Of a DNA stretch of 64,000 nt, positions 8,462 to 57,620 are shown one piece after another; positions within the stretch are counted from its first letter, which is position 1, and each line of letters begins with the position of its first letter. The notes beneath the pieces are model-generated. The model ran no database searches and was not told where the DNA came from. It worked only from the letters and a program-made list of their open reading frames with translations. The position numbers and the translations under genes are program-made. The stretch is from assembly GCA_918797485.1 (NCBI GenBank), contig CAKKNE010000003.1:4154001-4218000 (forward strand), written 5' to 3'. The stretch comes from Pelagomonas calceolata. Lineage: Eukaryota > Sar > Pelagophyceae > Pelagomonadales > Pelagomonadaceae.

Positions 8462-11400
8462 CTACCTCCGTTTGCAGTAGCACGTCAGGCCCTGGACGTG
8501 CTTGAGCGCCAGTTTGCCCTTCTCCGATGCAGCCTCACAGAACTTGCGGCAGACCTTGCGCGGCGACGCGTCGCGAACTGTCTTGTCCGACGAAAAGGTC
8601 TTGGTCCCGATGGTGCATAGATTTGGTGAGATGTAGTAGGGGTGCGTCGTGCCGGCCTCGTAGACGATCGTGGGGCCCAGGGCGCATTGTTCCTGGAACG
8701 CATTCGCGATCGCCGCGATGGTGATTCCCGTAAACGTGATGCCAATCGCCGCGAGTCCCGTTGACATGACGAGTTCCGTGGCCCCATCGTCGTCATCGTC
8801 GTCATCGTCGTAGTAGTAGTAGCAGTCCCACGATTCTATGATTTGGCAGTCACCAGTTTCGTCCTTTCGAGCGACGCCGCAAGACATTGAGCAGCACCCG
8901 CTGCCAGAGAACGCCCCATCGAGGTTCACATCATTGCCAACGCACCAGCTGAGGTCCTGGTTGAACGACGAAGCCCAGCCGAACATCTGGTGCATGTCCC
9001 TGACGTTGTCGACGCGCCAGCCGCCTAGGTCCTGGTCGAAGGCCGAGGCGCCGAAGAACATCCCGCTCATCGTCGTAACACCAGAGGTTTCCCACGCACT
9101 GAGGTCCTGGTCGAAGGCCGAGGCGCCGTAGAACATCCACCACATCGCTGTAACGCCGGATGTGTCCCACGCGCCGATGTCCTCGTTGAAGGACGCCGAT
9201 AAGACGCAGTCGTCATACCACGATTCGCCTTCCATCCAACCCTGCCGCACGCAAAACAACTTCGACATGTCCGTCACCCCTGAAGTCTCCCACGTCGAGA
9301 TGTGGCCGTAGGCCGCCTCGGCGGCGGCGCGGTCCTCCGCCCAGGCTCGGACTGCCGTGCGGATGCTTTCGTCGCCAAATGCTCCATCGAAGAATGTCGG
9401 CGCAAGCGTCACACATATGCCACCCTCAGAACGGCCCTGCACGACGCCGCACGACGTCGACGCGCACGGCGTGCCGGAGAACGCCTCGTCGAGGTTCACG
9501 TCGTCGCCCACGCACCAGCCGAGGTCCTGGTCGAAGGCCGAGCCGTGGTGGAACATGTAGTGCATATCCCTGACGTTCTCGACGCTCCAGCCGCCTAGGT
9601 CCTGATTAAAGGACGAGGCCCAGCTGAACATCTGGTGCATGTTCGTAACACCAGAGGTTTCCCACGCACTGAGGTCCTGGTCGAAGGCCGAGGCGGAATT
9701 GAACATCTGGTGCATATCCCTGACGTTGTCGACGCTCCAGGCGCTGATGTCCTGGTCGAAGGCCGAGGCGGAGTTGAACATACCGCTCATATCCGTGACG
9801 CTGTGAACCGCCCAACCACCGATGTCTCGGTTAAAGGCCGCGGCGTAGTAGAACATATAGTCCATCACTGTGACACCGGAGATATCCCACGCGCCGATGT
9901 CCTCGTTGAAGGACGACGCCGAGAAGCATATATCGTCATACCACGATTCGGCTTCCATCCAATCCTGCCACACGCAAAACAACCGAGACATGTCCGTCAC
10001 CCCCGATGTGTCCCACGTCGAGATGTGGCCGTACGTCGCCTCGGCGGCGGCGCGGTCCTCCATCCAGGCTCGGACTGCCGTGCGGATTCTGGAGTCGTCC
10101 ATGAAGTTGCGCTGCGTTGGCGCGGGTGTCGGAAACGGACAGTCCACGCCTTGGAGCACCACTCCGCAAGACGTCGCCTCGCACGGGGTGTTGGTGAACG
10201 CGTAGTCCAGGTTCGCGCCGTCGTCCACGCACCAGCCGAGGTCCTGGTCGAAGACCGAAGCGCCGCTGAACATATGGCTCATGTCCGTGACGCTGTCGAC
10301 GCGCCAGCCGCTGATGTCCTGATTAAATGAAGAGGCGCCGCCGAACATCTGGAACATGTTCGTAATAGCAGAGGTTTCCCACGAACTGAGGTCCTGGTTA
10401 AAGGCCGAGGCGCCCATGAACATGAAACTCATATACCTGACGTTGTGAACCGCCCAACCACCGATGTCCTGGTTGAAGGCCGAGGCTTCGGCGAACATCC
10501 TGTGCATCGTAGTCACGCCGGAGGTGTCCCACGCGCCGATGTCTTCGTTGAAGGCCGCAGCGGCCGAGTTGCATCTACTGTCCCAATCACACGCGGAAAA
10601 CAAAAACTCCATGTCCGTCACCCCTGAAGTCTCCCACGTCGAGATGTGGCCTAACCTCGCCTCGGTGGCGGCCGGATCGTTGAGCCAAGCCACGACGGCC
10701 CTGCGGATGCTGTCGTCCGTGTGATGCACGCCATCCCAGTAAGCAGTTGGCGCTGGAGTGGACACGCAGCTGCCGCTCGCAGGTACAAATTGGCCCTGCT
10801 CAACGCCGCACGACGTCGCCTCGCACGGCGTGCCGGAGAACGCGTCTTCCATTGTGTTGCCGTGCCCCCAGGGATCAAAGACGTCGTCGCCCACGCACCA
10901 GCCGAGGTCCTGGTCGAAGTCCGAGGCGCCTCTGAACATCCAGCGCATATCCGTGACGCTCTGGACCGCCCAATCACCGAGGTCCTGGTTAAAGGACGAG
11001 GCGGAGCTGAACATCCAGTGCATGTCCCTGACGTTGTCGACGCTCCAGGCGCTGATGTCCTGGTCGAAGGCTAAGGCGTTGAGGAACATCGACTCCATGT
11101 CCTTGACGCTGTGGACCGCCCAACCACCGATGTTCTGGTTGAAAGCCGAGGCGCCGTAGAACATGTGGCTCATCTCTGTGACGCCCGAAGTATCCCACGC
11201 GCCAATGTCCTGGTCGAAGGCCGAGGCACTGTGGAACATCGCCCACATCGTAGTGACGCCGGAGGTGTCCCACGCGCCGATGTCCTCGTTGAAGGACGAC
11301 TCCCTGAACAAATGCGACATGTCCGTCACCCCCCCAGTCTCCCACGTCGAGATGTGGCCGTACGTCGCCTCGGCGGCCGTCGCGTCCGCGAGCCACGCTG

Positions 11401-12781
11401 CAACTGCTTGCTCGATTTTCCAGTTGACCATGACGTTGCCCGTGCGCGAGACGTTGCAGTCGCCAGTATTGGTCTCCCACATTACGCCACACCACGTCGA
11501 ATCGCACGGGGTGTCGTCGAACGCGTTGTACAGAACCACGTCGTCGCCCACGCACCAGTCGAGGTCCTGGTTGAAGGCCGAGGCATAATAGAAGATGGAC
11601 TCCATCGTTGTGACGCCGGAGGTGTCCCACGCGCCGATGTCCTGGTCGAAGGCCGAGGCGTAGCGGAACATCCCGAACATGTTCTTGACGCCAGAGGTGT
11701 CCCACGCGCCGATGTCCTCGTTGAAGGACGTCTGGGAATTAAACAAATCCGACATGTCCGTCACCCCCCCAGTCGCCCACGTCGAAATGTGGCCGTACGT
11801 CGCCTCGGCGGCGGACTGGTCGGCAAACCAAGCCGCCACCGCCGTTCTAATGCTATCGTCGTCCATCACATAGCCCGTGAGCGCGCGCCGCTGCGCGAGG
11901 CCTCCCGCCGACGCGCGCGGAGGGTTATTGGTCTTCGTCATGGTTTTGGACTTGGTGTTGTCGTCGCTGCGGCCGCTGCGGCCGCGGACCGAAGTCTCCG
12001 CCGCCACGCGGGTGGCGTCCCCCCAAATAAGCAGGTAGCCGACGACGGACGAGCGCCAGGCCGCTCCCATCGTTGAGCTACTGCGCCGCGGAACCACCGA
12101 AGCGAGTACCTGGAAGAGGCACCAGGAAGTCCGCCCAAGGTAGCTCTGGGCCGCTTCTTCTTCGTCGACGCCGCCCTTGATCGCGTCCGGGGCCATGAAC
12201 TGCATCGTGGTGCCGGGCGTAGGCGCCAGCTCGGCGGACGCGACGTCCAAGACGTCGACGCCGTCCTTGGTCGGGGCCGCCAACATCAATATGGTGCCGT
12301 CCGACCGGTAGTTCTCGTATTGCACGTCGCTGCCGACGGTCTGCTCGATGGCGTGGAGCGCGTGCACCCCGCCCGCCTGGTACTTGTTCGGGTCGAGCTC
12401 GGCACTCGCCGCGCCATTTATAGGCTCGGAGTCGAACGCGTCGGCATAGACGCCCGCGCCGTAGTTCTTGTAGAGCTGGAGCCACGACTTCTTCGCAGCG
12501 TCGGTGCTCGCTAGGGCCCTCCTGGGGAAAGCGCCGTCGAGGCCGTTCTCGCCGGCTTGCGCGGCGCACGTGCTGCCGTTTTCGTAGGACGTGGTGATGA
12601 TTTCGTAGTCTCGAGCAAATGTCTCGATCCCCGCCTCGCTGTCGTCGTGCGCCGCGGCGGGGCTCGAGCCGCCCTTGGGGCAGCTGCTCAGTTTGATACC
12701 GCCCCGCGCGGGCGCCCGCGGCGGCGCGGCGCTGCCCAAGCGCAGCAGCAGGGCGCCGGCGACCACGGCGAGGCCCAGCAT
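8462..12781 (-). CDS. Large DUF285 (BspA-type) repeat surface protein
   Basis: The chosen start, ATG 12781, gives MLGLAVVAGALLLRLGSA, a signal peptide 50 bp downstream of a copy of the recurrent promoter element. Residues from about 18 to 240 form a distinct N-terminal region rich in acidic and Ala residues that is not recognised. From about residue 310 there are more than twenty ~25-residue DUF285 units ([22 protein letters not shown]). They are broken into at least five blocks, each closing with DLGWCVGDDV...C.S.SCGV and opening with [26 protein letters not shown]. A Tyr/Asp homopolymer (YYYYDDDDDDDD), a hydrophobic stretch and a Cys-rich C-terminus follow. 1,439 residues, no intron seen. 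DUF285 occurs in bacterial adhesins such as BspA; a role in adhesion or recognition is inferred. An alternative start lies at 12070 (MGAAWRSSVVGYLLIW). Confidence 0.8.
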   Translation of the reverse strand: MLGLAVVAGALLLRLGSAAPPRAPARGGIKLSSCPKGGSSPAAAHDDSEAGIETFARDYEIITTSYENGSTCAAQAGENGLDGAFPRRALASTDAAKKSWLQLYKNYGAGVYADAFDSEPINGAASAELDPNKYQAGGVHALHAIEQTVGSDVQYENYRSDGTILMLAAPTKDGVDVLDVASAELAPTPGTTMQFMAPDAIKGGVDEEEAAQSYLGRTSWCLFQVLASVVPRRSSSTMGAAWRSSVVGYLLIWGDATRVAAETSVRGRSGRSDDNTKSKTMTKTNNPPRASAGGLAQRRALTGYVMDDDSIRTAVAAWFADQSAAEATYGHISTWATGGVTDMSDLFNSQTSFNEDIGAWDTSGVKNMFGMFRYASAFDQDIGAWDTSGVTTMESIFYYASAFNQDLDWCVGDDVVLYNAFDDTPCDSTWCGVMWETNTGDCNVSRTGNVMVNWKIEQAVAAWLADATAAEATYGHISTWETGGVTDMSHLFRESSFNEDIGAWDTSGVTTMWAMFHSASAFDQDIGAWDTSGVTEMSHMFYGASAFNQNIGGWAVHSVKDMESMFLNALAFDQDISAWSVDNVRDMHWMFSSASSFNQDLGDWAVQSVTDMRWMFRGASDFDQDLGWCVGDDVFDPWGHGNTMEDAFSGTPCEATSCGVEQGQFVPASGSCVSTPAPTAYWDGVHHTDDSIRRAVVAWLNDPAATEARLGHISTWETSGVTDMEFLFSACDWDSRCNSAAAAFNEDIGAWDTSGVTTMHRMFAEASAFNQDIGGWAVHNVRYMSFMFMGASAFNQDLSSWETSAITNMFQMFGGASSFNQDISGWRVDSVTDMSHMFSGASVFDQDLGWCVDDGANLDYAFTNTPCEATSCGVVLQGVDCPFPTPAPTQRNFMDDSRIRTAVRAWMEDRAAAEATYGHISTWDTSGVTDMSRLFCVWQDWMEAESWYDDICFSASSFNEDIGAWDISGVTVMDYMFYYAAAFNRDIGGWAVHSVTDMSGMFNSASAFDQDISAWSVDNVRDMHQMFNSASAFDQDLSAWETSGVTNMHQMFSWASSFNQDLGGWSVENVRDMHYMFHHGSAFDQDLGWCVGDDVNLDEAFSGTPCASTSCGVVQGRSEGGICVTLAPTFFDGAFGDESIRTAVRAWAEDRAAAEAAYGHISTWETSGVTDMSKLFCVRQGWMEGESWYDDCVLSASFNEDIGAWDTSGVTAMWWMFYGASAFDQDLSAWETSGVTTMSGMFFGASAFDQDLGGWRVDNVRDMHQMFGWASSFNQDLSWCVGNDVNLDGAFSGSGCCSMSCGVARKDETGDCQIIESWDCYYYYDDDDDDDDGATELVMSTGLAAIGITFTGITIAAIANAFQEQCALGPTIVYEAGTTHPYYISPNLCTIGTKTFSSDKTVRDASPRKVCRKFCEAASEKGKLALKHVQGLTCYCKRR

Positions 12782-12830
12782 CTCTCTATCGTCCTTCTGT
12801 CCCGGCGGTCCCGGGCGCGCGGCGGCGCGT

Positions 12831-12854
12831 GCTAGTGTCTTACATGCCGCTAGC
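12831..12854 (-). promoter_or_regulatory. Recurrent CTAG...CTAG promoter element
   Basis: In the sense of the gene starting at 12781 it reads GCTAGCGGCATG then TAAGACACTAGC, and ends 50 bp before the ATG. The divergent subtilase starts 194 bp to the other side. Confidence 0.7.
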
Positions 12855-13047
12855 TGATTATGTATCATTTGCTCATCCGGGCTTACGCGCGCCGGCCGGC
12901 TCATCAAACTGATTGCAAACAAGCGTTTGCGCTTACATACATCCATACGTCATAACGGATGAATCTTGACGCGCCGTGAAGCGGTAAAACCCACCTGGCC
13001 CTGTACTTGTTGCTTCCCTGCAACCGTCAGCGTGGGCGTCGCGAGAC

Positions 13048-20673: not shown

Positions 20674-23304
20674 ATGCACCGAGCACTACTGCGACGCGTG
20701 CACGCGAGACGCCTCAGCACGGTGCCAAAACAAGCGCAATGCGTCGTAATCGGCGGTGGAATCATAGGCACGTCCACCGCCTACCACCTCGCGAAGCGAG
20801 GCTGGACCGACGTCGTGCTGCTCGAGCGGCACGCCTTGACGGCCGGAACGACATGGCACGCGGCGGGCCTGATGGTCACCTTCGGGTCCCTTTCGAGTAC
20901 TTCGACGGAGTGGCGCAAGTACTCCAAATCATTGTACCAATCCCTAGAAGCGGAGACGGGTCAGAGCACGGGTTTCCTGGGCTGCGGGTTTATCGAGCTG
21001 GCCACGGAACGAGATCGGCTCGAGGAGTACCGGCGCGTCGCGGCGTTCAACCGCAAGGAGGGCGTCGACGTGCACGAGATCGACGCGAGGGAGGTCTCCT
21101 CGTTATTTCCTTTATGTAGGACGGACGACGTGCTCGCGGGCTTTTATGTGGCGGACGACGGCCGCGTGAACCCGGTGGACGCCACCCAAGCGTTAGCCAA
21201 AGGGTTTAAACAGTTAGGAGGTACGATCGTCGAAGGCGTCGACTGTACAGATATCATAACGGAAGACGACGCCGTCGTCGGCCTGGAGACGTCCGCAGGA
21301 ACCATCAAGACGGACTACGTCGTCAACTGCGGCGGCCTGTGGGCGCGGGAACTAGGTAAGAGCCACGGCGTGCTAATTCCGAATCAAGCCGCGGAACACT
21401 ACTACCTCCTGACGGACGCCATGGACAATGTCGATCCGAGCTGGCCCGTCGTCGAGGATCCCAGGAATTACGCCTACATCCGGCCCGAGGGCGGCGGTTT
21501 GATGGTTGGGCTGTTCGAGGGCGAAGCTGCATCATGGGATTCATCAATACCGCCCTTCGGCGAAATAGCCCCGGACTGGGACCGGTTGGCGCCCTACCTC
21601 GAGAAGGCCATGTCGCGCGTGCCTTCGGTCCAGGACGTGGGCGTGAAGAAGTTATTTTGTGGGCCCGAGTCGTTCACACCTGATTTGGCACCACTCATAG
21701 GCGAAGCTCCCGAGTTACAAAGGTATTTTGTGGCGGCCGGTTTGAATAGCATAGGCATCCTGACGGGGCCCGGCGTCGGTAGGAGCGTCGCGAATTGGAT
21801 CGTGGACGGCGTTCCCGATGTGGATGTGTGCGGTTTTCACGTCGACCGGGCTCGAGACTACCAGGCGACGCCGGCCTATCGTCTTGAGAGGGTCAAGGAG
21901 GCCTTAGGGGATGTCTACAAGTGCCACTACCCGTACAAGACGCCGCAGGCGGGCCGCGACCTGTGTGGAAATCAACCTTCTTCACTTAGTCATTTCTCGG
22001 CGACGACGCGGCCCCGCTGACTGAACCGAGCGGTGAGAGACCCACACCGCCACGCTATCGAGCAGGCGTCGCGTCGATGGCGTGGAGGCCATGATTCAGC
22101 AGTGGGCGGAGAGGCGCCTCGATATTTGGTTTTCTACACAGGCCGCGACGCCATGCGGTCGCCGTTACACGCCGCGTTGGTGGAACGACAGGCGACGTTT
22201 CGCTCGGTCTCCGGCTTCGAGGCCGCGGACTACTTCGGCGGTAAAGATGGGCCCTTGAGTTGGGGCGAGCCGCCCTTCTTTGCGGCTTGGCGCGACGAGC
22301 ACCGCGCCGTGCGCGAGGCGTGCGGTTTAATTGATATGTCGTTCATGTCAAAATTCGTGGTCGCCGGCCGCGACGCCGTGCACGTGTTGCAACGCTTAAG
22401 CACCTCGGACATAAACACGGGCAAGATGACCTACACGCAGTGGCTGCATAAGGAGACGGGCGGCGTCGAAGCCGACGTCACGGTCTGCCGCCTGCCCCGG
22501 GGCACGCCCTGGGCGCCTACCGATGACTCCTTCCTCGTCGTCGCGACGGACACGATCCACCGGCGCGTCCAGGCGATGGTAAGGAGGGAGGTCCGTGACG
22601 GAGAGGTCTGCGCGGTCGTCGATATGACGGGTGGGCTGGCGAAGGTCGACGTCCAGGGTCCTTCATCAAAAGACGTGCTCCCCGAGCTTGGTGATTTGGC
22701 CTTCCGCGGCGTCTCCACCATTAGTATCGGCAAGTGCGCTTCCGTGGTGGCAGCGCGCCTCACCTACGTGGGCGAGCACGGCTACGAGCTCTTCGTCCCA
22801 TCAGAACATGCTGTAGACGTGCATGACGCGCTCGTCGACCGAGGCGCGCCCCACGGTCTGCGCCACGTCGGGCTCAAGGCGGTGAACTCGCTGCGGCTCG
22901 AAAAAGGTTACAGGGACTACGGCCACGACATCGATAATTTAGATGGTGTCCACGATGTCGGTTTGAGCTTCACGTGCGATTTGACAAAAGAATTCAACGG
23001 AAAAGATCGTGTTCTAGAAGCGGCCTCTCAACCACGGTCGCGGCGCCTCGTGTCCGTATTTGTTGAAGACAAAGACGCGTGGCCCCAGCCCGGGGCGCCG
23101 GTGTTGCGCGACGGTCGCGTGGTGGGCGACCTCCGGAGCGTGACCTACGGCCACGCGCTCGGGGGCTTCGTGGGCCTGGCGATGGTCGACGGCCCTCGAT
23201 GGTCGGGAGACGACTTCGCCGTCGACGTGGGCGGCCGCGTCTACCCGTGTCGCGCGTCGCTGCGCGGGTTCTACGACCCGCGGTCGGAGCGGGTGCGTGC
23301 TTGA
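20674..23304 (+). CDS. Dimethylglycine/sarcosine dehydrogenase-like FAD enzyme with GcvT domain
   Basis: Two exons (20674-21952, 22142-23304) give 813 residues. A probable mitochondrial presequence (MHRALLRRVHARRLSTV) precedes a DAO-type FAD domain: dinucleotide motif VVIGGGIIGTSTAYHLAKRG, and the covalent-flavin block TAGTTWHAAGL with its His. The C-terminal half is an aminomethyltransferase (GcvT-like) folate domain: LIDMSFMSKFVVAGRDA, GYELFVPSEHA, LRLEKGYRDYGHDID. Such enzymes oxidatively demethylate dimethylglycine or sarcosine in choline and glycine-betaine breakdown, passing C1 units to tetrahydrofolate. Sequence alone does not separate the two substrates. The single intron is a clean introner. 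Confidence 0.9.
21952..22148 (+). mobile_element. Introner with perfect 8-bp TSD GGCCGCGA and GC donor
   Basis: The element spans 21960-22140 (181 bp), with ends CCTGTGTGGAAATCAAC and TTTTCTACACAGG. GGCCGCGA occurs at 21952-21959 and 22141-22148. The intron 21953-22141 uses a GC donor within the TSD; splicing exactly restores PQAGRDAMRSPL. Its interior (CTTCACTTAGTCATTTCTCGG) is shared with the introners at 46514 and 47342. Confidence 0.93.
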
Positions 23305-45650: not shown

Positions 45651-48600
45651 CTATCCATACCACTTCCGCGTCCTCGCCTTGGTTGCAGTCGGCCCCGGTG
45701 CCACGCCCTGGTCGTCGAGGAAGGCCGTCGTCACGGGCCCGAAGGACTTCCAATTCGCGAGCGCCTCCGGTGTCGCCGGGTACGCGCCGTGCGTCTTTTT
45801 CAGCGCCGCGCGCGCCGGTGCGCCGTACCACGTCCGCATCGGCTCGAAGACCGTGTTGATCCTGTTGTTCTTCGCCGCTTCGGCGCCTCCCTTGACCGCC
45901 GGCGACGCGCTCGAGGCGCCCGCCTGGGCAGGCCGCGCGTCGGCGGGCGACTTTGCCGCGGCCTCATCCGACTGCGCCGCCCGGAACATGTTCATGACGG
46001 AGCTGGCCAGAGACTGTGAGGACCCTTGACCGCTAGCGACGCTGGCGGGCGGAGGCGCGTCGCCGGCCGTGGGCGAGCTGGCGCTCCAGGGGCGGCTGAT
46101 CGAAGAAGGGCGACGCGGCGTCGTCGCCTGGAGTTCCTTGCAAATGTCGGCGAAGCTCGGGCGAGCGTCCGGGTCCTGGGCCCACGCGCGTTCCATGAGA
46201 GAGCTGAGGTCGCGGGGCATGGACTTTGGTACGTCCAGCCTCTGTTCCTTGATGAGCTTGTAGAGAATTTGTTGCGGCTTGAGTCCCGCCCAGGGGATCC
46301 CACGGTCGTAAATCTCCCACAGGACGACCGCATAGCTGTAGACGTCACTCTTCTCCGTGAAGGTGTTGTCGTCGAATAATTCCGGCGCCATGAACGCGGG
46401 CGTCCCCGCGACGCTGTCTCTCATCGTCGCGGTCGTCGTGAACGTCTTCAGCTCCTCGCAGCGAGAGAGCCCAAAGTCGGTCACCTTGCACCGCCCGTCG
46501 TGCGTGAGCAGCACCTGTGTGGAAATCAAAATTTTACGGCGCTGCCAGCACGGCCGATTCCTCGCCGCTCGACGGAGCCAGCACGGCCGCGTCATCACCG
46601 AGAAATGACTTAGTGAAGAATTATCGGGTGCACGCGACACACTGGTTGATTTCCACACAGAGCAGCACGTTGTGGGTCTTCAAGTCGCGATGCTCGATCT
46701 TGCAGCTATAGAGGTGCGCCATGCCCAGCGCCACGTCCGCCGTCCAGAAGCGCTGGTACTCCGGCGTGATCACCTCGTCGTCGCGGTCGAGCGCGTGCCG
46801 CAGCGATCCGCCGGGCAGATACTCCATCACGAGGCCGAGGAAGGTAGGGTTGGTGGTGACGACGCCGAGGACCTGGACCGTGCGCGGATGCCGCAGGCGG
46901 ATCATGATCCCTAGCTCGGTTTTGAACGACGAGAGCATCTTCGTGCGCTTGACGGCCGGGACCCCGACCATGCTGATTTTCTTCAGGCAAACAATCTCTC
47001 CGCCCAGGTAGCCGCGAAAGACCGCCCCCTGGCCACCCTCCGCGAAAGGCAGTTCCTCCACGTCCTCGAGCTCGAGCTCGGACTGCCCCAAGGCCGCCTC
47101 TTTCATGCGCTTGACCAGTTCCCGCGACTTCGTCTTCCGCAGCGCCCCGCCGAGCTCGTGGACGTTTCGTCGGATAGACGCGTTGCGGTCGTTGCCAGCC
47201 GCGATGGCCGCCAGGATCCGCTTGTCGCGCGCCGCGCCCGCCTGGACGGCCGCCATGAGCTTCTCGTCGCGTCCCACGCCGGCTTTGACGGCGACAAGGA
47301 TCGACTTGAGCTGCTGCTTGTCCATAGTTCTACCATCCAGCCTGCGCGCAAATCAACCAGTGAGTCGGGTGCACCCGATAATTCTTCACGGAGTCCTTTA
47401 TCGGCGAGAACGCGGCCGTGCTGGCTGAATCGAGCGGTGAGAGACCACGCCGCCACGCGATGGCCTTCGAGACGCGCCGCGACAATTTGATTATGCACTG
47501 CATCCAGCATTTTGTTCATCTTCTTGTCCAACTTGCTCAGGCCCTCCTTCACTTCGAGCTTGAACTCGCGCATCTCGACCGCGATCTCCGTCGGCGGCAC
47601 GCGCGCGTCGACCGCGACCGACGTGATCGCGACGGCGTCCTCCGAGAGCGCCGCCGCCGCCTCCTCCTCGGATTCCCCTTTCTCGACGACGCGCTTCGCG
47701 ACGAGCGCCGCGATGGACTGCTCGATCTGGTACGTTCGCTCCATGAGCTGAAAGTCCATGGCCAACCGGTAGCTCAGCCGGAGGACGCCCAGCTGCTCGA
47801 CGATGCGCGTGTCGATGCGACCCAGCTTCTTGACGTGGCTCTGCATCGTGAACGCGCGCTTGAGCCAGCCCTTCTGCCCGAACGCGCGCACGGCCACGTG
47901 GAATTCCTTCATTAAGTCGATGAGCCGCTGCATGTTCGCTTGGGCAATATCTTTGCCGTCTGAGCACTTCGAGACGTTCTTCGACATGAGATCAACCACG
48001 TCCAGGACGTCGATGACGCGCCGTGCCGCAACGAGGACGTCGTCGGCCTTTTCGCTGAACTCCTCGACGTCGCCGAGAATCCCCTTGGCGACCCGGCACA
48101 GCGGTCCGATGAGCGGCAAGCCGCTCGCAGCGGAGAGCAGGGCCGAGGTCACCGTCATGCCTCTCTCGACGACAGCCGTCGTCTCCTTGTGCCGCACGAG
48201 CATCGTGGAGCGGTCGTTGCCTTCCTCGAGCTCGATGTCGCCGAGCTCCACATCGCCGCTGAGAGCCATTGGTTTCTTATTCGCCGCCGAACCTTTGCCG
48301 CGGCGGTAGAAGAAGAAGGCGGCGGCAGCCAGCAACAGGATGGCACCCGCGGCAGCTCCGCCACCAGCAACTATCACGCCGCCGTCGCTACCCCCACCGG
48401 AGCCCCCGGAGCTCGTCGACTCGGAGGAGCTTTCGGCGCTGCCGATCGCGCCGTCGGGCGTAGGTCTTGGGGTCGGCCTCGAAGTGGGAGCCCCGATGGG
48501 CCTCGGCGTCGTGACGACGAACGTATAACTCGCCGCCTCGATCGCCGCTTGCGTCGCTTCGACGTCCATGGTCACGGCGGCGAACGAGGGATCCGAGGCC

Positions 48601-51443
48601 TGCAGCGTGGCCAGGAAACTGCCGTCGTAGACCGCCAACGTCATAGCGTCCATGGACTGTTCCAGCAATTCCGCCGAGACTTGTTCGCCGTTATCCGTGC
48701 CGTCGACGCGCGCGACGCCCGTGTACGAGATTTCGATTTCGACGCCATCGCCGCTATCCACGCCCGGCGTCGGCATCCCCCGCGTCGGCGCCAAGGTCGG
48801 CGCCAAGGTCGGCGAATACGTCGTTCGTAAGCGCCGCCGCTGCCGCTCGGCGGCCTCGATGTCGATGATCTCTTCAAAAAGACCGCCGGTACTGTCTATG
48901 ATCGACTGCGCAAACGAAGCTTGCATGCCGTCCTTGTCGGCATTGAAAATGACGGTGACGATGCCCTCGAGCGTCACCGACGAAGTAATCTGGACGGCCG
49001 TCTGGGTCGGCGTCGGGGCCGACGTCGTCGGCGCCGTGGTAGGCGCTGGAGAAGGCCTTGGCGTTGGTCTGGGCGTCGGCAGCTGCGTCGGACTTCCGGG
49101 CACCGGTGACGGAGCGGGCGTCGGTTGAGGGGTCGGGCGCGGCGTCGGCCTGGGCGTCGGATTTGGGGTCGGCCTGGGCGTCGGCGCGAAAACGGGCGCT
49201 TTCGTCGGAATGGGCGTCGGAATGGGCGTCGGCCTTGGAGTCGGTCTGATGGTCGGGCGTGGCGACGGCTGAGGGAACGTCGGCCGCGGAGATGGCTGAG
49301 GTGTTGTCGGGCGCGGCGTTGGTTGCGGAACCGGCAGCGGCGTCGGGCGCGGCGTCGGCCGCCGTGAGGGTTGAGGCGTCGGCCTGGGCGTCGGCCGGTT
49401 GCTGGGCGCTGGCGTCGGAGGCGCTGTTGGCCGTGGAGTTGGACTTGGAAACGTCGGGCGCGCGGTCGGCCGCGGCGTAGGCATCGACGTCGGCTTCGGC
49501 GTCGGGCGCTGAGTAGGCTTCGGCGTCGGCCGAAATGTGGGGCGCGGCGTCGGCTTTGGCGTCGGACAGTCGGCGACATTTGCAACTTGCACGACGCCGC
49601 ACGACGTCGACTCGCACTTGGCCTCCTCGAACGCGTCGTCCAGGTCCACATCGTCGTCCACGCACCAGCCGAGGTTCTGGTCGAAGGCCGAGGCATATTT
49701 GAACATTTCGAACATATCTAGGACCTGCTCGACGCTCCAGCTGCCTATGTCCTGATTAAATGACGAGGCGCCGCTGAACATATTCTCCATGCTCTTGACG
49801 CCCGAGGTGTCCCACGCGCCGATGTCCTGGTTAAAGGACGAGGCTTCCTCGAACATACTCTCCATGCTCTTGACGCCCGAGGTGTCCCACGCGCCGATGT
49901 CCTGGTTAAAGGCCGAGGCGTCGTGGAACATGCCCTCCATCGTCGTGACGCCAGAGGTGTCCCACGCGCCGATGTCTTGATTAAAGGCCGACGCGTAGCC
50001 GAACATCCATTCCATGCTTCTGACGCCGGAGGTGTCCCACGCGCCGATGTCCTGGTCGAAGGCCGAGGCGTCGCGGAACATGTAGTCCATCCTTGTGACG
50101 CCGGAGGTGTCCCACGCGCCGATGTCCTGGTCGAAGGCCGAGGCGTCGCGGAACATGTAGTCCATCCTTGTGACGCCGGAGGTGTCCCACGCGCCGATGT
50201 CCTGGTCGAAGGACGAGGCTTCGTCGAACATCTCCGCCATGCTCTTGACGCCCGAGGTGTCCCAATTACCGATGTCCTGGTTAAAGGCCGAGGCGCCTTG
50301 GAACATCCCGCTCATCGCTGCGCCAGAGGTGTCCCACGCGCCAATGTCCTGGTTGAAGGCCGAGGCGTCGCGGAACATCTCGCTCATGTCCGTGACGCTG
50401 TGGACCGCCCAGCCACTGATGTCCTGGTCGAAGGCCGAGGCGCCGGCGAACATCCCGCTCATATCCGTGACCTTGTCAACCCGCCAGTCGTTCAGCGGTT
50501 GGTCGAACGCCGAGGCGCTTTCGAACATGTAGACCATATCCCTGACGTTTCCTACGCTCCAGCCGCCAATGTTCTGATTGAACGACGAGGCGTCGTAGAA
50601 CATGTAGTCCATCCTTGTGACGCCGGAGGTGTCCCACGCGCCAATGTCCTCGTTGAAGGACGCCGCTGCTTCGTTGCAAAACGTTTCGTCCATGTCTGCG
50701 CAAAATAAGTACGACATGTCCGTCACCCCCGATGTGTCCCAAGTCGAAATGTGGCCGTAGTCCGCCTCGACGACGGCGCGGTCGTCAAACCACGCAATAA
50801 TAGTAGGTCTAATCAAGACGTCGTCCATGACGTAGCCCGACGCGCCGTGGTCGTGTCCGTCGTCGAGGCGGCGGCGGCCGTGGTCGTGGCCGTCGTGCCC
50901 GCCGCCGCCCTCCTCGACGAGCGGCTCGACGTCCTCGCCCGCCGCGTCCTGGAGGTAGTGCATGTCGTTCTCGAACTCCGTGGGCACGTGCTCCGCGAAG
51001 ACGTAGCCCCTGAGCTTGCGCCGCGTCCGAGAAAATTTAATGTCGTCCGAGAACGGCGCGACGGACGCGTTTGCCGGTCCGGCCGCGGCGAGTCTCGCCG
51101 TCGAGGCCAGCAGCACGCCGACGAGGCGTGCGTTCCAGCCCGAGCGCCTCGCGGAGCTTCCAAAGGTATTGAGGGCCGCAGCGAGCGCTGACAGCGCGCC
51201 GACGACGCAGAAAAAGGCCCAGACGCACGCCGAGGCGGCAGCGGCGCCCAGCGACCGCCAGCTGTTGTCCTCGCCCAGGCTCATCGCAGGCGCCGCGCCG
51301 AGCAGCAGCCCGGACCACTCGTCAAAGCAGCGCGTCGCCGTCGCGCGCGCCGCGAACGCCCAAAACGCCGCCGCGGCGCCGCCCTTCAGCGTGGAATTCC
51401 AAATCTGACTGCAGAGGCCGCCCTCCTTCCCGGGCGCCGCCAT
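45651..51443 (-). CDS. DUF285 receptor kinase (BspA ectodomain - TM - MLKL-like helical segment - TKL-like kinase)
   Basis: Exons 51443..47509, 47341..46669 and 46514..45651 sum to 1,823 codons in one frame. From ATG 51443 there are two N-terminal hydrophobic segments (about residues 78-98 and 112-130) and His-rich HDGHDHG. About fifteen DUF285 units (about 200-620) and a PTPRPT stalk (to about 800) follow. A SEA-like region leads to a transmembrane helix (about 1020-1048: [26 protein letters not shown]). The cytosol begins with [21 protein letters not shown]...QKGWLKRAF (about 1090-1235), resembling the HeLo/MLKL four-helix bundle. The kinase (about 1410-1660) has [27 protein letters not shown] and APE, so it should be active. 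The C-terminus carries the WYGAPAR module. A ligand-gated immune or adhesion receptor is inferred. A kinase made alone from the internal ATG 47325 is the alternative. Confidence 0.75.
46506..46667 (-). mobile_element. Introner with perfect 8-bp TSD GAGCAGCA, inside the kinase catalytic loop
   Basis: The element spans 46514-46659, between GAGCAGCA at 46506-46513 and 46660-46667, with TIRs CCTGTGTGGAAATCAAA and TTGATTTCCACACAG. In gene sense the intron is 46668..46515 (GT-AG, 154 bp), and splicing restores [15 protein letters not shown]. The interior belongs to the same subfamily as 21960 and has the same orientation relative to its gene. Confidence 0.93.
47334..47508 (-). mobile_element. Introner with perfect 8-bp TSD and GC donor, joining ectodomain/TM half to kinase half
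   Basis: The element spans 47342-47500. In gene sense GCTGGATG occurs at 47508..47501 and again at 47341..47334. The GC donor at 47508 and the AG at 47343-47342 (GCGCGCAG) give a 167-bp intron whose removal restores [16 protein letters not shown]. The interior is the 21960/46514 subfamily in reversed orientation (GCCAGCACGGCCGCG...GAATTATCGGGTGC). Confidence 0.9.
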
Positions 51444-51654
51444 CGTTTGGCCCGGCGCGGCGTCGGGGCGGTAGACAGCGTGCCTGTGCCCGCTGTGCTG
51501 TGCTCCAATGGAGCTTCTGATGCGCGCGACGGCTGCGCGGGGCCTTTTTTCTCGCTGAGGTGCTGTAGGGCTGCCTTTTGGTAGCGCCCCGTTCACGTAT
51601 TCCAATTTGCGGCGTGAATTTGCGCGAGACTTGTATCAGCGCACGGCGCTGATC

Positions 51655-52224: not shown

Positions 52225-55200
52225 TCAGGAAGAAACAGAACGGCCGCACGCCATGCAGAAGTTCGCGCCGTCCGCGAGCCGGTTGCCGCAAGATGGGCAG
52301 AAGTTTCGGGGCGGTGCGGCCGCGCGCGACATCGACGACGCGACGACCGATGCCGTGCCGGGGACTGCCGTCGGCGGCGTGACGAGGACACCTTCGAGCG
52401 GCTGCGACGGAGAAGCGGGGTCGCCGCCCGCGCCCCAGCCGAACCAGCCGCGCGCCTCCGGCGCAGGAGGCGCCGAGGGCGCCGTCACGGGCGCGGCGGC
52501 CGGCGGCGCCGCGGCCGGGGGCTCCGCGGCCGACGCTGCGGGCGCGCCTGTCGACGCGACGCCCTGATCGTCGAGGAACGCCGTCGTCACAGCGCCGAAC
52601 GACTTCCAATTCGCGAGCGCCTCCGGAGTCGGCGGGAACTGTCCATACTTTTCCCGCAGCGCGCGCCGCGCCGGTGCTCCGTACCACGTCCGCATCGGCG
52701 CGAAGACCATGCGGATCTTGCTGTCCGCCTTTGCTGTCGCCCCCTTAACCGGTCCGCGCTTCTTGCCGCGAACGGTAGTGGTGGGCGCGGCCGCCGGCGC
52801 GGGCGGCGGCGCGGCCGCGGCAGCGTCGCTCCCGCGGCGACTCAGGGCCCGGGCAAGCAGCCCCGGCGCGGGCGGCGGCGGCGGCTCGTCGAGCCTTGGA
52901 GGTGATGACGGCGGTCTGAGGCGGCGCCTCCAATCCGCCGGCCTCGTCGCATACCCCGTTCGCGTTGGCCTCAACGTCCTGCGACTTCTTAGCAGCAGTG
53001 TTTCGACGGTAGAAGAAGAAGGCTCCGGCGGCGGCCAGGAGCAGCACGAGCGCGCCGGCGGCCGCGCCGCCCGCCGTCGCCGCGTCCGGGCCCGCTGCGC
53101 CAGATCCGGAGCCAGAGCCGCCGCCTGAGACCAAAGATACGGGCGACATCGTGAGGGACGGCCGCGGCGTCGGTGCTGGGGTCGGTTTTGGCGTCGGAGG
53201 AGACAATGGCCTTGGCGTCGGCGCCGCTGTCGGCTCCGGTGTCGTGACGACAAACACGTGCCTTGCTCGCCCGATGTGAGCTCGCGTCGCCGTCTCGTCG
53301 ACGGTGATGGCGTTGAACGCGGCGGCGGCTTCGGGCGAGCGTTCCGCGGCGTTGGTCCGAAGCTTGGTCAGAAAGCTCCCGTCGTCGACCGCGGTCGTCA
53401 GGGCGGCCGCGGCCTTCTCCAATAAATCCGTCGATACGGCCTCGGCGTCCTCGATGCCGTCGACGCGCGCGACGCCCGTGTAAGAGACGTCCGCGAGGCC
53501 CGCGGCCGCCCGCGTCGGCGCCAGAGTACGATCTGCCTCCCGCGTCGGCGCCGGGCTCGGCGGATATTCCGTCTGCAAGCGCCGCGTACGATCTGCCTCC
53601 CGCGTCAGCGCCGGAGAAGGCGGATACTCCGCCTGCAGGCGCCGCCGGCGGACGACGGCCTCCACATCAACCACTTCGTTGAACACGCCGTCCGAACTGT
53701 CGATGATAGACTGCGCAAACGCATCCTTCATGTCCTCGTCCGCGTTAAATTCGTCGGCCACCACGCCTTCGAGACTGACCGACGAGGCGACCTCGACCAC
53801 CGTCTGGGCCGGCGACGGCGCCGGCGTGGGGGCCGGCGTCGGCGCGGGCGACGGCCTAGGACTCGGTGGCTGCGAGGGCCTGGGAGTCGGGCGCTGCGTC
53901 GGCCGCTGAGTCGGGCGCGGCGTAGGCCTGGGAGTCGGTTGTGGGGTAGGCCGTTGAGTAGGATTTCCCGGCAGCGGCGTCGGTCCGGGCGTGGGACGCA
54001 ACGTCGGGCGCGATGTCGGTAGTGGCGAGGGAATAGGCGTCGGCCGAGGAGTGGGTCTCTGCGTCGGTCTCGCGCTAGGCCGCGGCGTCGGTCGGGGGCT
54101 CGGCGCTGGCGTGGGGCGCAGCGTCGGTCTCGCGCTAGGCCGCGGCGTCGGGCGCGCGGTCGGACGCGATCTGTGTAGGAATCAAGCGGTGAGTTGGCGT
54201 GCCAATAACAAACTACGATTTCCGCACAGGCACCGGCGTCGGGCGCCATGAGGGCCGTTGCGTCGGCTGAGGGACCGTCGGCTGCGGCGTCGGGCGCGGC
54301 GTCGGCCGCCGTGAGGGTTGAGGCGTCGGCCTGGGCGTCGGCCGCTTGCTGGGCGCTGGCGTCGGAGGCGCTGTTGGCCGTGGAGTTGGACTTGGAAACG
54401 TCGGGCGCGCGGTCGGCTTCGGCGTCGGCTTCGACGTCGGCTTCGGCGTCGGGCGCTGAGTAGGCTTCGGCGTCGGCCGAAATGTGGGGCGCGGCGTCGG
54501 ATTCGGCGTCGGGCAGTCTGCGACATTTTCAACTTGCACGACGCCGCACGACGTCGACTCGCACGGGGTGTAGTCGAACGTCATGAATAGGTTCACGTCG
54601 TCGTCCAGGCACCAGCCGAGGTCCTGGTCGAAGGCCGAGGCGTAGAAGAACATCTGCCCCATATTATATCCCCTTACGCCGTGGACCACCCAATCACCGA
54701 TGTCTTGATTAAAGGCCGAGGCGCCGATGAACATCCTGCTCATGCTTGTTACGCCGGAGGTGTCCCACGCGCCAATGTCCTGGTCGAAGGACGAGGCGGA
54801 GTCGAACATCCTCTCCATGCTCTTGACGCCCGAGGTGTCCCACGCGCCGATGTCCTGGTTAAAGGCCGAGGCGTCGTGGAACATGCCCTCCATCGTCGTG
54901 ACGCCGGAGGTGTCCCACGCGCCAATGTCCTCGTTGAAGGACGCCGCTGCTTCGTTGCAATCGTCCTCGTCTGCGCAAAATAAGTACGACATGTCCGTCA
55001 CCCCCGATGTGTCAAACGTCGAGATGTGGCCGTACGTGTCCTCGGCGGCCGTCGCGTCCGAGAGCCATGCTGCAACTGCAATTCTGATCTTTCCGTTGGC
55101 CATGACATTACCATTGCTTGGGATGTCGCAGCCGCCCCACGAGACGCCACAAAACGTCGACGCGCACGGGGTGTCGTAGAACGCCCAGTTCAGGTCCACG

Positions 55201-57056
55201 TCGTCGTCCAGGCACCAGCCGAGGTCCTGGTCGAAGGCCGAGGCCCCGACAAACATCCAGCGCATCGTCGTGACGCCGGAGGTGTCCCACGCGCCGATGT
55301 CCTCGTTGAAGGACGAGTCGCGGAACAGGAACAACTCCTCCATGTCCGTCACCGCCCCAGTCTCCCACGTCGAGATGTGGCCGTACGTCGCCTCGGCGGC
55401 GGCGCTGTCCGAGAGCCACCTTGCAACTGCAATTCTGATCTTCCCATTGGCCATGACGTTTCCTGTGCTCGTGCAATCGCCAGAGTTCTCAACTTGCACG
55501 ACGCCGCACGACGTCGACTCGCACGGGGTGTAGTCGAACGTCATGAATAGGTTCACGTCGTCGTCCAGGCACCAGCCGAGGTCCTGGTCGAAGGCCGAGG
55601 CGTAGAAGAACATCTGCCCCATATTATATCCACTTACCTCGTGGACCACCCAATCACCGATGTCTTGATTAAAGGCCGAGGCGCCGATGAACATCCTGCT
55701 CATGCTTGTTACGCCGGAGGTGTCCCACGCGCCAATGTCCTGGTCGAAGGACGAGGCGGAGTCGAACATCCTCTCCATGCTCTTGACGCCCGAGGTGTCC
55801 CACGCGCCGATGTCCCCATTAAAGGCCGACGCGTAGCCGAACATCAAGTCCATCCTTGTGACGCCGGAGGTGTCCCACGCGCCGATGTCCTGGTCGAAGG
55901 CCGAGGCGGAGGTGAACATCCCGGACATCGACGTGACGCCGGAGGTGTCCCACGCGCCGATGTCCTGGTCGAAGGCCGAGGCGCCGTCGAACATACCTGC
56001 CATGTTCTTGACGCCGGAGGTGTCCCAATCACCAATGTCCTGATCGAAGGCCGAGGCGTCTCCAAACATCTCGAACATGTCAGTGACGCTGTGGACCGCC
56101 CAACCACTGATGTCCTGGTCGAAGGCGTAGGCGGATTGGAACATCATCTTCATCGTCGTGACGCCCGAAGTGTCCCACGCGCCGATGTCCTCGTTGAAGG
56201 ACGCCGCTGCTTCGTTGCAAACCGTTTCGTCCTCGTCTGCGCAAAATAAGTTCGACATGTCCGTCACCCCTCCGGTCTCCCACGTTGAAATGTGGCCGTA
56301 CGTTGCCTCGGCGGCAGTTTCGTCCGAGAGCCACGCCGCCACGGCGTCTCGAATGCTGCTGTCGTCCATCGCGGTGCCTAGGCGTCGCTGGCCACGGTGC
56401 ATCGTCGGCGCCGGCGACCACGCTAGCGAGTTCGGAAACGCCGAGTCCACGAACCAACCGCTACTCCAGGGCGCGTCGCTGCCACCGCCGTGGTCGTGTC
56501 CGCTGTTGTCGTCGAGGCGGCGGCGGCCGTGGTCGTGGCCGTCGTGCCCGCCCTCCTCGACGAGCGGCTCGACGTCCTCGCCCGCCGCGTCCTGGAGGTA
56601 GTGCATGTCGTTCTCGAACTCCGTGGGCACGTGCTCCGCGAAGACGTAGCCCGTGAGCTTCGTCCGAGAAATATCGTCCGAGAACGGCGCGACGGACGCG
56701 TTTGCCGGTCCGGCCGCGGCGAGTCTCGCCGTCGAGGCCAGCAGCACGCCGGCGAGGCGTGCGTTCCAGCCCGAGCGCCTCGCGGAGCTTCCAAAGGTAT
56801 TGAGGGCCGCCGCGAGCGCTGATAGCGCGCCGACGACGCAGAAAAAGGCCCAGACGCACGCCACGGCGGCAGCGGTAGCCAGCGACCGCCAGCTGTTGTC
56901 CTCGCCCAGGCTCATCGTTGGCACCGCGCCGAGCAGCCCGGACTCGCCGGAGCAGCGCGTCGCCGCGCGAATTGCGAACGCCGAACAAGCCGCCGCGGCG
57001 CCGCCCTTCAGCGTGGAATTCCAAATCAAGCCGCCCTTCTTCTCGGCCGCTGCCAT
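52225..57056 (-). CDS. DUF285 receptor paralogue without kinase, with C-terminal WYGAPAR module and zinc ribbon
   Basis: From ATG 57056 ([19 protein letters not shown]) the first ~190 residues closely match the receptor at 51443, including the hydrophobic segments and HDGHDHG. About seventeen DUF285 units in three blocks and a PTPRPT stalk interrupted by a short intron (54231..54171) follow. A SEA-like domain and a transmembrane helix ([26 protein letters not shown]) come next. In the cytosolic region the frame changes once between about 52850 and 52930 (total length is not a multiple of three). It continues with [38 protein letters not shown] and a zinc ribbon ([19 protein letters not shown]). 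The MLKL-like segment and kinase are absent. It could be a decoy or co-receptor of the kinase paralogue, or a decaying copy. Confidence 0.65.
54171..54231 (-). mobile_element. Short introner-type intron in the PT stalk
   Basis: Ends CCTGTGCGGAAATCG and GATTCCTACACAG match the introner TIRs. A GC donor at 54231 and AG at 54172-54171 keep the frame; without removal the protein stops at VRKS. The kinase paralogue has no intron in its stalk, so this is a presence/absence difference between recent paralogues. Confidence 0.75.
54526..55815 (-). repeat. Near-identical internal duplication in the DUF285 array
   Basis: About 330 bp at 54526-54855 recur almost unchanged at 55486-55815 (offset 960 bp). 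Both copies cover the end of one DUF285 block, including [21 protein letters not shown] and [13 protein letters not shown]. The few differences (VVHGVRGYN versus VVHEVSGYN) point to recent unequal exchange or conversion. Confidence 0.85.
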
Positions 57057-57620
57057 CTTCTGGACGGCGCGGCGTCGGGGCGGTAGACCGCGTGCCTGTG
57101 CAGCTGTGCTCCAATGGGAGCTTCTGATGCGCGCGACGGCTGCGCGGGGTCTTTTTTCTCGCTGACGTGCCGTAGGGCTGCCTTTGGTAGCGCCCCGTTC
57201 AAGTATTCCAATTTGCGGCGTGTGCTTTGCGCGAGCTTGTACCATGGTACAGCGGATCGGAGGCGCTATCATCATACCTAGGTATAGTTATCATCATGAT
57301 GATCCTGAGGTCGTCCCCGGTAGCACGAACACGGGTCCGCGAAGGCTCAGCGGACGCCTGCGCCCGGCCGCAACGAAATAACTCGCTATTTTTCCTGGCT
57401 CGCGGGAGAGACAACTCCCAAAAAAGATCCACAAAAGACAACACACTAACGCGGCCGCCGCCAGGCCCGCCCCCGCGCCGCGGGCCACGGCGGCAGCGCG
57501 GACGCGAGCCGCGCGTTCAGGAGAGCGACCGCCGCGCAAGACGCGAACGCGAGGCGGCCCCGCCGCAGAAAGGGGGGCAGCCCCGAGGGCCCCGCACTCG
57601 CCGCGAAGAGGCTTCCCCCC
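56480..57620. repeat. Segmental duplication, right copy (left copy about 50850-51982)
   Basis: The receptor 5' coding region, its promoter/leader (CGCGGGGCCTTTTTTCTCGC-like versus CGCGGGGTCTTTTTTCTCGC) and the MFS 3' end are strongly conserved between the two blocks, in the same order and orientation. The left copy ends abruptly at ureG. Part of the leader (about 57225-57310) differs, with a CATCATGATGATC palindrome only in the right copy. Confidence 0.85.

What the first reader, a model, noticed from the sequence alone, without database searches (positions are those of the whole stretch)
45651..51443. A single-polypeptide DUF285 receptor kinase with an MLKL-like helical segment
Two precise introner excisions (TSDs restored) fuse three frames into one 1,823-codon gene: bacterial-type DUF285 ectodomain, PT stalk, TM, HeLo/MLKL-like bundle, intact TKL-like kinase and a novel C-terminal module. 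A four-helix bundle followed by a kinase recalls cell-death executors, here placed under an ectodomain that looks like an adhesion or recognition surface. I know of no described receptor with this order. The four-helix assignment rests on pattern only (LPLIGPL...QKGWLKRAF).
Basis: partly seen in the sequence, partly recalled or inferred. Interest (0 to 1): 0.9.

Follow-up and report, generated by a model that had tools for sequence, protein, structure and literature searches.

The report
Algal DUF285 surface receptor kinase gene
An algal gene interrupted by two mobile introns appears to encode a cell-surface receptor with a repeat-built outer domain and an intact-looking protein kinase inside; its resemblance to cell-death proteins is not shown.

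Summary
The gene structure holds. Removing two introner-like elements (47342-47508, GC-AG; 46515-46668, GT-AG; both with intact 8-bp target duplications) joins three frames into exactly 1,823 codons. The parts: a DUF285 solenoid (E 1.4e-163), a PT stalk, a membrane-proximal domain, a TM, an all-helical segment, a TKL-type kinase (E 2.8e-54) with its catalytic motifs, and a short C-terminal module.

The MLKL/HeLo claim gained no support. Pfam's MLKL_N finds human MLKL but not this segment. No solved chain matches by sequence. A profile comparison with human MLKL is no better than shuffles (130 of 200 score as high). Single-sequence AlphaFold models are helical but low-confidence; no MLKL is among the 50 fold matches listed for each. 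This is inconclusive, not a refutation.

New here: a tandem twin (52225-57275) has a similar upstream flank and outer part but no kinase. In the stalk, identity is 96-99% over 200 bases, then falls to about 60% at 49.34 kb. This suggests one ectodomain placed on two tails. I rate it a new variant of a receptor kinase.

The parts
45651..51443 (-).
   Evidence: start codon not proven (an in-frame TTG ORF extends to 51605)
47509..51443 (-). Exon 1 (N-terminus, DUF285, stalk, TM, helical segment)
47342..47508 (-). Intron 1, introner-like element, 167 nt, TSD GCTGGATG, GC...AG if excised exactly; GC also at +12
46669..47341 (-). Exon 2 (end of helical region, kinase N-lobe to catalytic loop)
46515..46668 (-). 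Intron 2, same element family in the opposite orientation, 154 nt, TSD GTGCTGCT, GT...AG; GT also at +12
45651..46514 (-). Exon 3 (kinase DFG to end, tail, C-terminal module)
51171..51227 (-). N-terminal hydrophobic segment, aa 73-91 (signal anchor or first TM)
   Evidence: hydropathy 2.28
49713..50756 (-). DUF285 / PARCEL repeats, aa 230-577, 75-bp (25-aa) period
   Evidence: Pfam DUF285 E 1.4e-163; NCBIfam TIGR02167, 12 stretches
49002..49568 (-). PT-rich stalk, aa 626-814
   Evidence: sequence
49316..49348 (-). Identity breakpoint with the tandem twin, inside the stalk (99% in the 100 aligned bases before, 60% after)
48498..49001 (-). Membrane-proximal domain, aa 815-982, shared with the twin; resembles SEA-type domains only by recollection
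   Evidence: 87 of 158 aligned residues identical to twin, dN/dS 0.46; no match above a Pfam cut-off (best E 0.036); PDB profile best E 0.52
48321..48377 (-). Transmembrane segment, aa 1023-1041
   Evidence: hydropathy 2.19
47730..48155 (-).
   Evidence: AlphaFold single sequence pLDDT 59.9, pTM 0.50, all helix
47167..47292 (-). Three 14-residue repeats between helical segment and kinase
   Evidence: (2.1 copies of a 42-bp unit at 47206-47292)
46131..47061 (-). TKL-type kinase domain, aa 1406-1664, interrupted by intron 2 just after HRDLKTHN
   Evidence: PF07714 E 2.8e-54; motifs; CTR1, TNNI3K, MLK, RIPK among the best solved relatives
45696..45869 (-). C-terminal module aa 1752-1809 (FEPMRTWYG...)
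   Evidence: shared with the twin, 42 of 57 identical, dN/dS 0.31; no Pfam match, PDB profile best E 0.85
52225..57275 (-). Tandem twin (gene B): DUF285, PT, membrane-proximal domain, TM, C-terminal module and zinc ribbon; no match to the helical segment or kinase of the first gene

Best explanation
This is a cell-surface receptor protein kinase of an introner-bearing alga, most likely a pelagophyte. A DUF285 beta-solenoid on a proline/threonine stalk meets a ligand, a neighbouring cell or a virus. Clustering of receptors brings the inner halves together. The helical segment under the membrane acts as a dimerisation and relay element, and the active TKL kinase phosphorylates itself and downstream proteins. 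The C-terminal module docks a partner that is also used by the kinase-less twin next door, which would serve as co-receptor or competitor. Shown from sequence: gene anatomy, domain order, catalytic motifs, twin with another tail. Inferred: splicing, topology, ligand binding, clustering, and every signalling step.
For: The spliced frame is exactly continuous. The element family shows TIRs and 8-bp TSDs starting GT/GC in 6 of 7 members. DUF285 E 1.4e-163 and kinase E 2.8e-54. The motifs [37 protein letters not shown] and RPSF are present. Of 1,389 solved sequences matched, 60 were shown: after an EGFR chain with two kinase stretches come the TKLs CTR1, TNNI3K, MLK and others, with RIPK and ABL further down. 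One strong TM lies between ectodomain and kinase. dN/dS against the twin is 0.58, 0.46 and 0.31 in three shared segments. Stramenopile precedent: TKLs are the only P. infestans ePKs with TM domains, and some carry extracellular LRRs (PMC3019232, passages read).
Against: No transcript was available. The first glycine of the GxGxxG loop is replaced by alanine (sequence). The start codon and the N-terminal hydrophobic segment leave the topology open. No relative with this domain order was found in 6 scans of viral contigs (one search was out of frame by my error) and 2 of prokaryotic contigs; each used only a part of the gene or intron, and no eukaryote collection could be searched. If 12 nt are retained at intron 2, four residues are added between the catalytic loop and DFG; the Pfam score then falls from 188.2 to 180.3.
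Confidence: 0.62

Rival explanations
1. One reading: the helical segment is a HeLo/MLKL-type four-helix bundle, and the protein is a receptor and membrane-killing executor in one chain. Activation of the kinase would release the bundle to attack the membrane beside its own TM.
For: The order helical bundle, helical linker, kinase is that of MLKL and of wheat Pm13 (4HB, three-helix brace, STK), and some fungal HELL domains are joined to kinase or pseudokinase domains (PMC10951266, PMC12881547, passages read). The core model has helices 16-27, 30-63, 67-94, a short 97-110, and 116-141, and a short helix between h3 and h4 is described for MLKL-likes (PMC9815663, passages read). The best profile alignment places aa 1153-1199 on human MLKL 44-90, the register that I would expect.
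Against: No HeLo-type match in Pfam or NCBIfam; only unrelated families below their cut-offs, best E 0.074, although Pfam's MLKL_N detects human MLKL at 5.6e-61. No PDB sequence at E up to 10. The profile score is equalled or beaten by 130 of 200 shuffles, by the reversed segment and by two of four control segments of the same protein. The ungapped alignment that I had expected by eye scores 8, while an unrelated place scores 24. The best Smith-Waterman alignment lies elsewhere. No MLKL among the 50 rows shown of 468 and of 717 fold matches, none with E below 0.08. Net charge of aa 1095-1235 is about +3 against +9 in the human domain. The segment stands behind a TM and not at a free N-terminus. 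The models are low-confidence, so the structural part is absence of support only.
Confidence: 0.25
2. Intron 1 is retained in part or all transcripts. The gene then makes a kinase-less receptor ending at 47103, and a second product from the ATG at 47325 carries the kinase, so receptor and kinase are separate proteins.
For: Intron 1 is open in the exon-1 frame through all 167 nt. Uninterrupted ORFs exist for 47103-51605 and from ATG 47325. Its donor would be GC and its terminal repeats are degenerate. The twin B is a natural kinase-less version.
Against: The retained product ends in about 80 codons of another frame after the intron. The ORF from ATG 47325 still needs intron 2 removed to complete the kinase. 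Rare GC donors are reported at 0-50% among introner families (PMC9860276, passages read).
Confidence: 0.13
3. The locus is decaying or recombined junk: the ectodomain and upstream flank were copied between paralogs, and this copy is a chimaera with no function.
For: The sharp identity step inside the stalk (99% to 60%) suggests recent exchange, and the repeats vary in number.
Against: The 1,823-codon frame is open, kinase motifs are present, dN/dS is below 1 in three segments, and the TSDs are undamaged.
Confidence: 0.05

Closest known systems
Stramenopile transmembrane TKL kinases (P. infestans oomycete-specific TKLs, some with LRR ectodomains; PMC3019232, passages read)
   Same: Single-chain receptor with repeat ectodomain, TM and intracellular TKL kinase
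   Different: Ectodomain here is DUF285 on a PT stalk; a helical segment precedes the kinase and an unassigned module follows it
MLKL / Pm13 / fungal HELL-kinase proteins (PMC10951266, PMC12881547, PMC9815663, passages read)
   Same: Helical segment, helical linker, kinase in that order
   Different: No sequence or fold match obtained; a receptor ectodomain and TM stand in front; the kinase keeps its catalytic motifs, unlike the mammalian MLKL pseudokinase
DUF285 / PARCEL proteins of Mollicutes and other bacteria, diatoms, green algae and the Aureococcus giant virus (PMC2996958, PMC11992049, PMC10720644, passages read)
   Same: 25-residue repeats in tandem
   Different: Here coupled to a kinase; none of the passages that I read describes that
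Introners of Aureococcus (PMC9860276, passages read; Huff et al. 2016 recalled, not seen)
   Same: 8-bp TSD, terminal AG, in-frame insertion
   Different: The cited family leaves 12 nt in the transcript; here exact excision and +12 are both in frame

Membership tests
TKL protein kinase | Kinase domain matching PK_Tyr_Ser-Thr and nearest to TKL members | tested here: met
   PF07714 E 2.8e-54; CTR1, TNNI3K, MLK, RIPK among the 60 rows shown of 1,389, after a two-stretch EGFR chain; no tree was built
TKL protein kinase | Catalytic residues K, E, HRD, DFG, APE | tested here: met
   first Gly of the G-loop is Ala
MLKL/HeLo | Recognised by Pfam MLKL_N or another HeLo-type profile | tested here: not met
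   no HeLo-type match at E up to 10, with HMMER's filters on; positive control human MLKL found. CDD cd21037, used for Pm13 in PMC10951266, was not available
MLKL/HeLo | Four-helix bundle fold | tested here: inconclusive
   helical, pLDDT 48.2 and 59.9, no significant fold match
MLKL/HeLo | Membrane permeabilisation or cell death | not testable with these tools
   needs experiment
DUF285/PARCEL | 25-residue repeats above the curated cut-off | tested here: met
   535.2 bits against cut-off 25; TIGR02167 152.3 against 30; NF045896 at 408.4 is below its cut-off of 500
Introner | TIRs and TSD, several copies | tested here: met
   6 of 7 window copies with TSD of at least 7/8
Introner | Spliced out of mRNA | not testable with these tools
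   no transcripts held
Receptor kinase | Ectodomain, single TM, cytosolic kinase in one chain | tested here: inconclusive
   met in the spliced frame, but the N-terminal hydrophobic segment and splicing are unproven

The most novel reading that the evidence does not exclude
A one-chain surface receptor and death executor: a DUF285 ectodomain, a repeat type that the giant virus of Aureococcus itself encodes in 38 proteins, sits above an MLKL-like bundle and an active kinase. The ectodomain is swapped by recombination in the stalk onto killing and non-killing tails, as a virus- or self-recognition system of bloom algae.
Probability: 0.1. Interest if true: 0.88.

Novelty: new variant of a known kind. 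Interest (0 to 1): 0.5.

Why it matters
If real, it gives DUF285, an abundant marine domain without known function, a place as a receptor ectodomain linked to kinase signalling. The twin with a similar upstream flank and outer part but another tail offers a ready comparison for asking what the kinase adds, and suggests that receptor tails are exchanged by recombination in the stalk. The cell-death link would be of wide interest but has no support yet.

Tried and rejected
Relatives: the helical segment, exon 2, the C-terminal module and the introner core gave nothing in viral contigs; the helical segment and the module gave nothing in prokaryotic genome contigs; the helical segment gave nothing in phage records. 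The DUF285 part found 2 viral loci, 42-47% identical, GC 0.38 and 0.31; in the stretches held (20,414 of 38,914 and 13,214 of 35,473 bases) no ORF passed my simple HRD+DFG test for a kinase. A search of record G001 and the 14 control genomes with DUF7792 rang nowhere and says nothing.

Rejected: that exact excision is proved by the canonical kinase length. Removing one TSD copy plus the element always restores the pre-insertion sequence, whatever splice sites the cell uses, so the score difference is not decisive. Also rejected: the Smith-Waterman score with human MLKL (BLOSUM62 z 2.4, 13 of 500 shuffles as good; BLOSUM45 z 1.3, 55 of 500), because it aligns another part of the protein. In the same call this reading frame was the best of 305 window frames (43 against 40 for the next), but it is also much longer than the next ones.

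The membrane-proximal domain was tried against Pfam and a PDB profile search without a significant result. My SEA-like label is recall only. One paper in the listing (PMC7333395, on plant receptor kinases) seemed to mention DUF285; the passage says DUF2854.

Full report
What was claimed.

Gene structure. Joining 51443-47509, 47341-46669 and 46514-45651 gives 5,472 nt, 1,823 residues and a stop; retaining intron 1 or intron 2 gives a stop after 1,446 or 1,551 residues. The two interruptions are flanked by identical 8-bp repeats, GCTGGATG and GTGCTGCT, and are inverted copies of one element, 84% alike over 100 nt. A 21-base core taken from one occurs without mismatch in the other, against 0.00 expected in shuffles. 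A terminal-repeat search gave 8 matches, which I group into seven elements (the matches at 46515 and 46644 are the two ends of one). One search printed many candidate parses; I kept, for each element, the one with matching terminal repeats at both ends, in the orientation of the neighbouring ORFs or of the better terminal repeat, and dropped the rest, including the reverse readings of the same elements. Six of the seven have a duplication of at least 7/8 (three of them 8/8) that begins GT or GC, next to a terminal AG; the seventh, in the neighbouring gene at 54171, has none. GT or GC makes up 0.176 of dinucleotides, so six of six would occur by chance with about 3e-5, ignoring that I chose the parses. 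An exact 8-bp repeat alone is not strong: 49 of 1,064 random AG sites had one.

Splice sites. The pattern fits a donor taken from the target duplication and an acceptor carried by the element. I recall that Huff et al. 2016 described this for Aureococcus; I did not see that paper. PMC9860276 (passages read) reports instead, for an Aureococcus sp. family, that 12 nt stay in the transcript, 8 from the duplication and 4 from the element. Both introns here have GC or GT exactly there. Since 12 nt keep the frame, one polypeptide follows either way, but the +12 form would put four more residues between the catalytic loop and DFG. The kinase score is 188.2 bits for the exact form and 180.3 for the other. 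This does not decide the matter, because exact removal always recreates the pre-insertion gene.

Protein. Pfam finds DUF285 (E 1.4e-163) in exon 1 and PK_Tyr_Ser-Thr (E 2.8e-54) in the joined inner half; NCBIfam calls the same repeats PARCEL, 12 stretches. A 75-bp period underlies them. A PT stalk, a membrane-proximal domain and one strong TM (aa 1023-1041) follow; a second hydrophobic stretch lies at aa 73-91. The kinase keeps its lysine, alpha-C glutamate, HRD, DFG and APE; the first glycine of the loop is alanine. Of 1,389 solved sequences matched, the 60 shown include CTR1, TNNI3K, MLK, RIPK and ABL; an EGFR chain with two summed stretches ranks first. Three 14-residue repeats lie between helical segment and kinase.

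The MLKL question. Pfam and NCBIfam: no HeLo-type match for the segment, only unrelated families below their cut-offs at E 0.074 to 0.11, while human MLKL is found at 5.6e-61. PDB sequences: 0 matches at E up to 10 (the typed query bore four stray letters in front). Smith-Waterman against human MLKL: z 2.4, 13 of 500 shuffles as good, but aligned to another part. Single-sequence HMM in maximum-sensitivity mode: best stretch E 0.063. hhalign: the expected register, but 130 of 200 shuffles, the reversed segment and two of four control segments score as high or higher. The ungapped alignment that I had in mind scores 8, an unrelated place in the protein 24. Structure: 246 residues gave pLDDT 48.2 and the 142-residue core 59.9 with pTM 0.50, both helical. 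Foldseek gave 468 and 717 matches, none with E below 0.08; the 50 rows shown in each list hold talin, GIT1, syntaxin and other helical proteins and no MLKL. Single-sequence models of this quality cannot settle a fold, and MLKL itself was not folded as a control. The claim is unsupported, not disproved. In its favour stands the arrangement helical segment, helical linker, kinase, which is that of MLKL and Pm13 (PMC10951266, passages read).

The tandem twin. Gene B (52225-57275) has DUF285, PT, the membrane-proximal domain, a TM, the C-terminal module and a zinc ribbon; the helical segment and kinase of the first gene find only themselves in the window. In bins of 100 aligned bases, identity between the two genes is 87, 94 and 93% in the upstream flank from about 52.0 to 51.7 kb (48 and 53% further out); 88, 89, 98, 98, 99 and 83% in the N-terminal coding part; 70 and 81% in the last repeats; 96 and 99% at the start of the stalk; then 60 and 58%, and 63-70% through the membrane-proximal domain. 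Near the C-terminal module the bins are 70 and 83%, and 40-43% beyond the gene. Synonymous divergence is 0.10 in the N-terminal part, 0.71 in the membrane-proximal domain and 0.51 in the C-terminal module; dN/dS is 0.58, 0.46 and 0.31 (own script). The simplest reading is a recent duplication or conversion that put one upstream flank and ectodomain on two older, different tails, with the boundary at about 49.32-49.35 kb in the low-complexity stalk. Most of the repeat region differs in copy number and was not scored. Alignments within the stalk are uncertain, but the membrane-proximal domain confirms the low identity beyond it.

Mechanism. Best supported is an ordinary receptor-kinase scheme: the solenoid binds, receptors cluster, the TKL kinase acts, the C-terminal module docks a partner shared with the kinase-less twin. 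Only the anatomy is shown. The helical segment could be a dimerisation relay (my preference) or a membrane-attacking bundle (0.25). The Aureococcus virus encodes 38 DUF285 proteins (PMC10720644, passages read), which makes a recognition or decoy role thinkable but untested.

Novelty. My nine literature searches (open-licence library only) listed no paper that, from the title and the part of the abstract shown, describes a DUF285 receptor kinase. One listed paper on plant receptor kinases matched only through DUF2854. I read passages of eleven papers, none in full.

Noticed in passing
49316-49348 and 54237-54260: Sharp identity step between tandem genes inside the PT stalk; in the twin it lies about 23 bases from an introner-like intron.
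   Followed up: partly
52225-57275: Kinase-less twin needs a frame change between TM and C-terminal module (many GT-AG solutions) and ends in a zinc ribbon (PF13240, E 2.6e-08).
   Followed up: partly
8462-12946 (-): Third DUF285 gene, 1,494-aa ORF, nine Pfam stretches, no kinase match.
   Followed up: partly
5753-8290 (+): PT repeat plus C-terminal SH3 domain in one ORF; another SH3 ORF lies at 2766-4256.
   Followed up: no
20674-23304 (+): DAO-FAO_M and GCV_T ORFs meet at an introner copy with an intact TSD (21953-22141); probably one enzyme gene.
   Followed up: no
47167-47292 (-): Three 14-residue repeats ([14 protein letters not shown] type) just before the kinase.
   Followed up: no
L001 4922-18082: Viral contig with an open frame of 4,387 codons carrying many DUF285-type repeats.
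   Followed up: no
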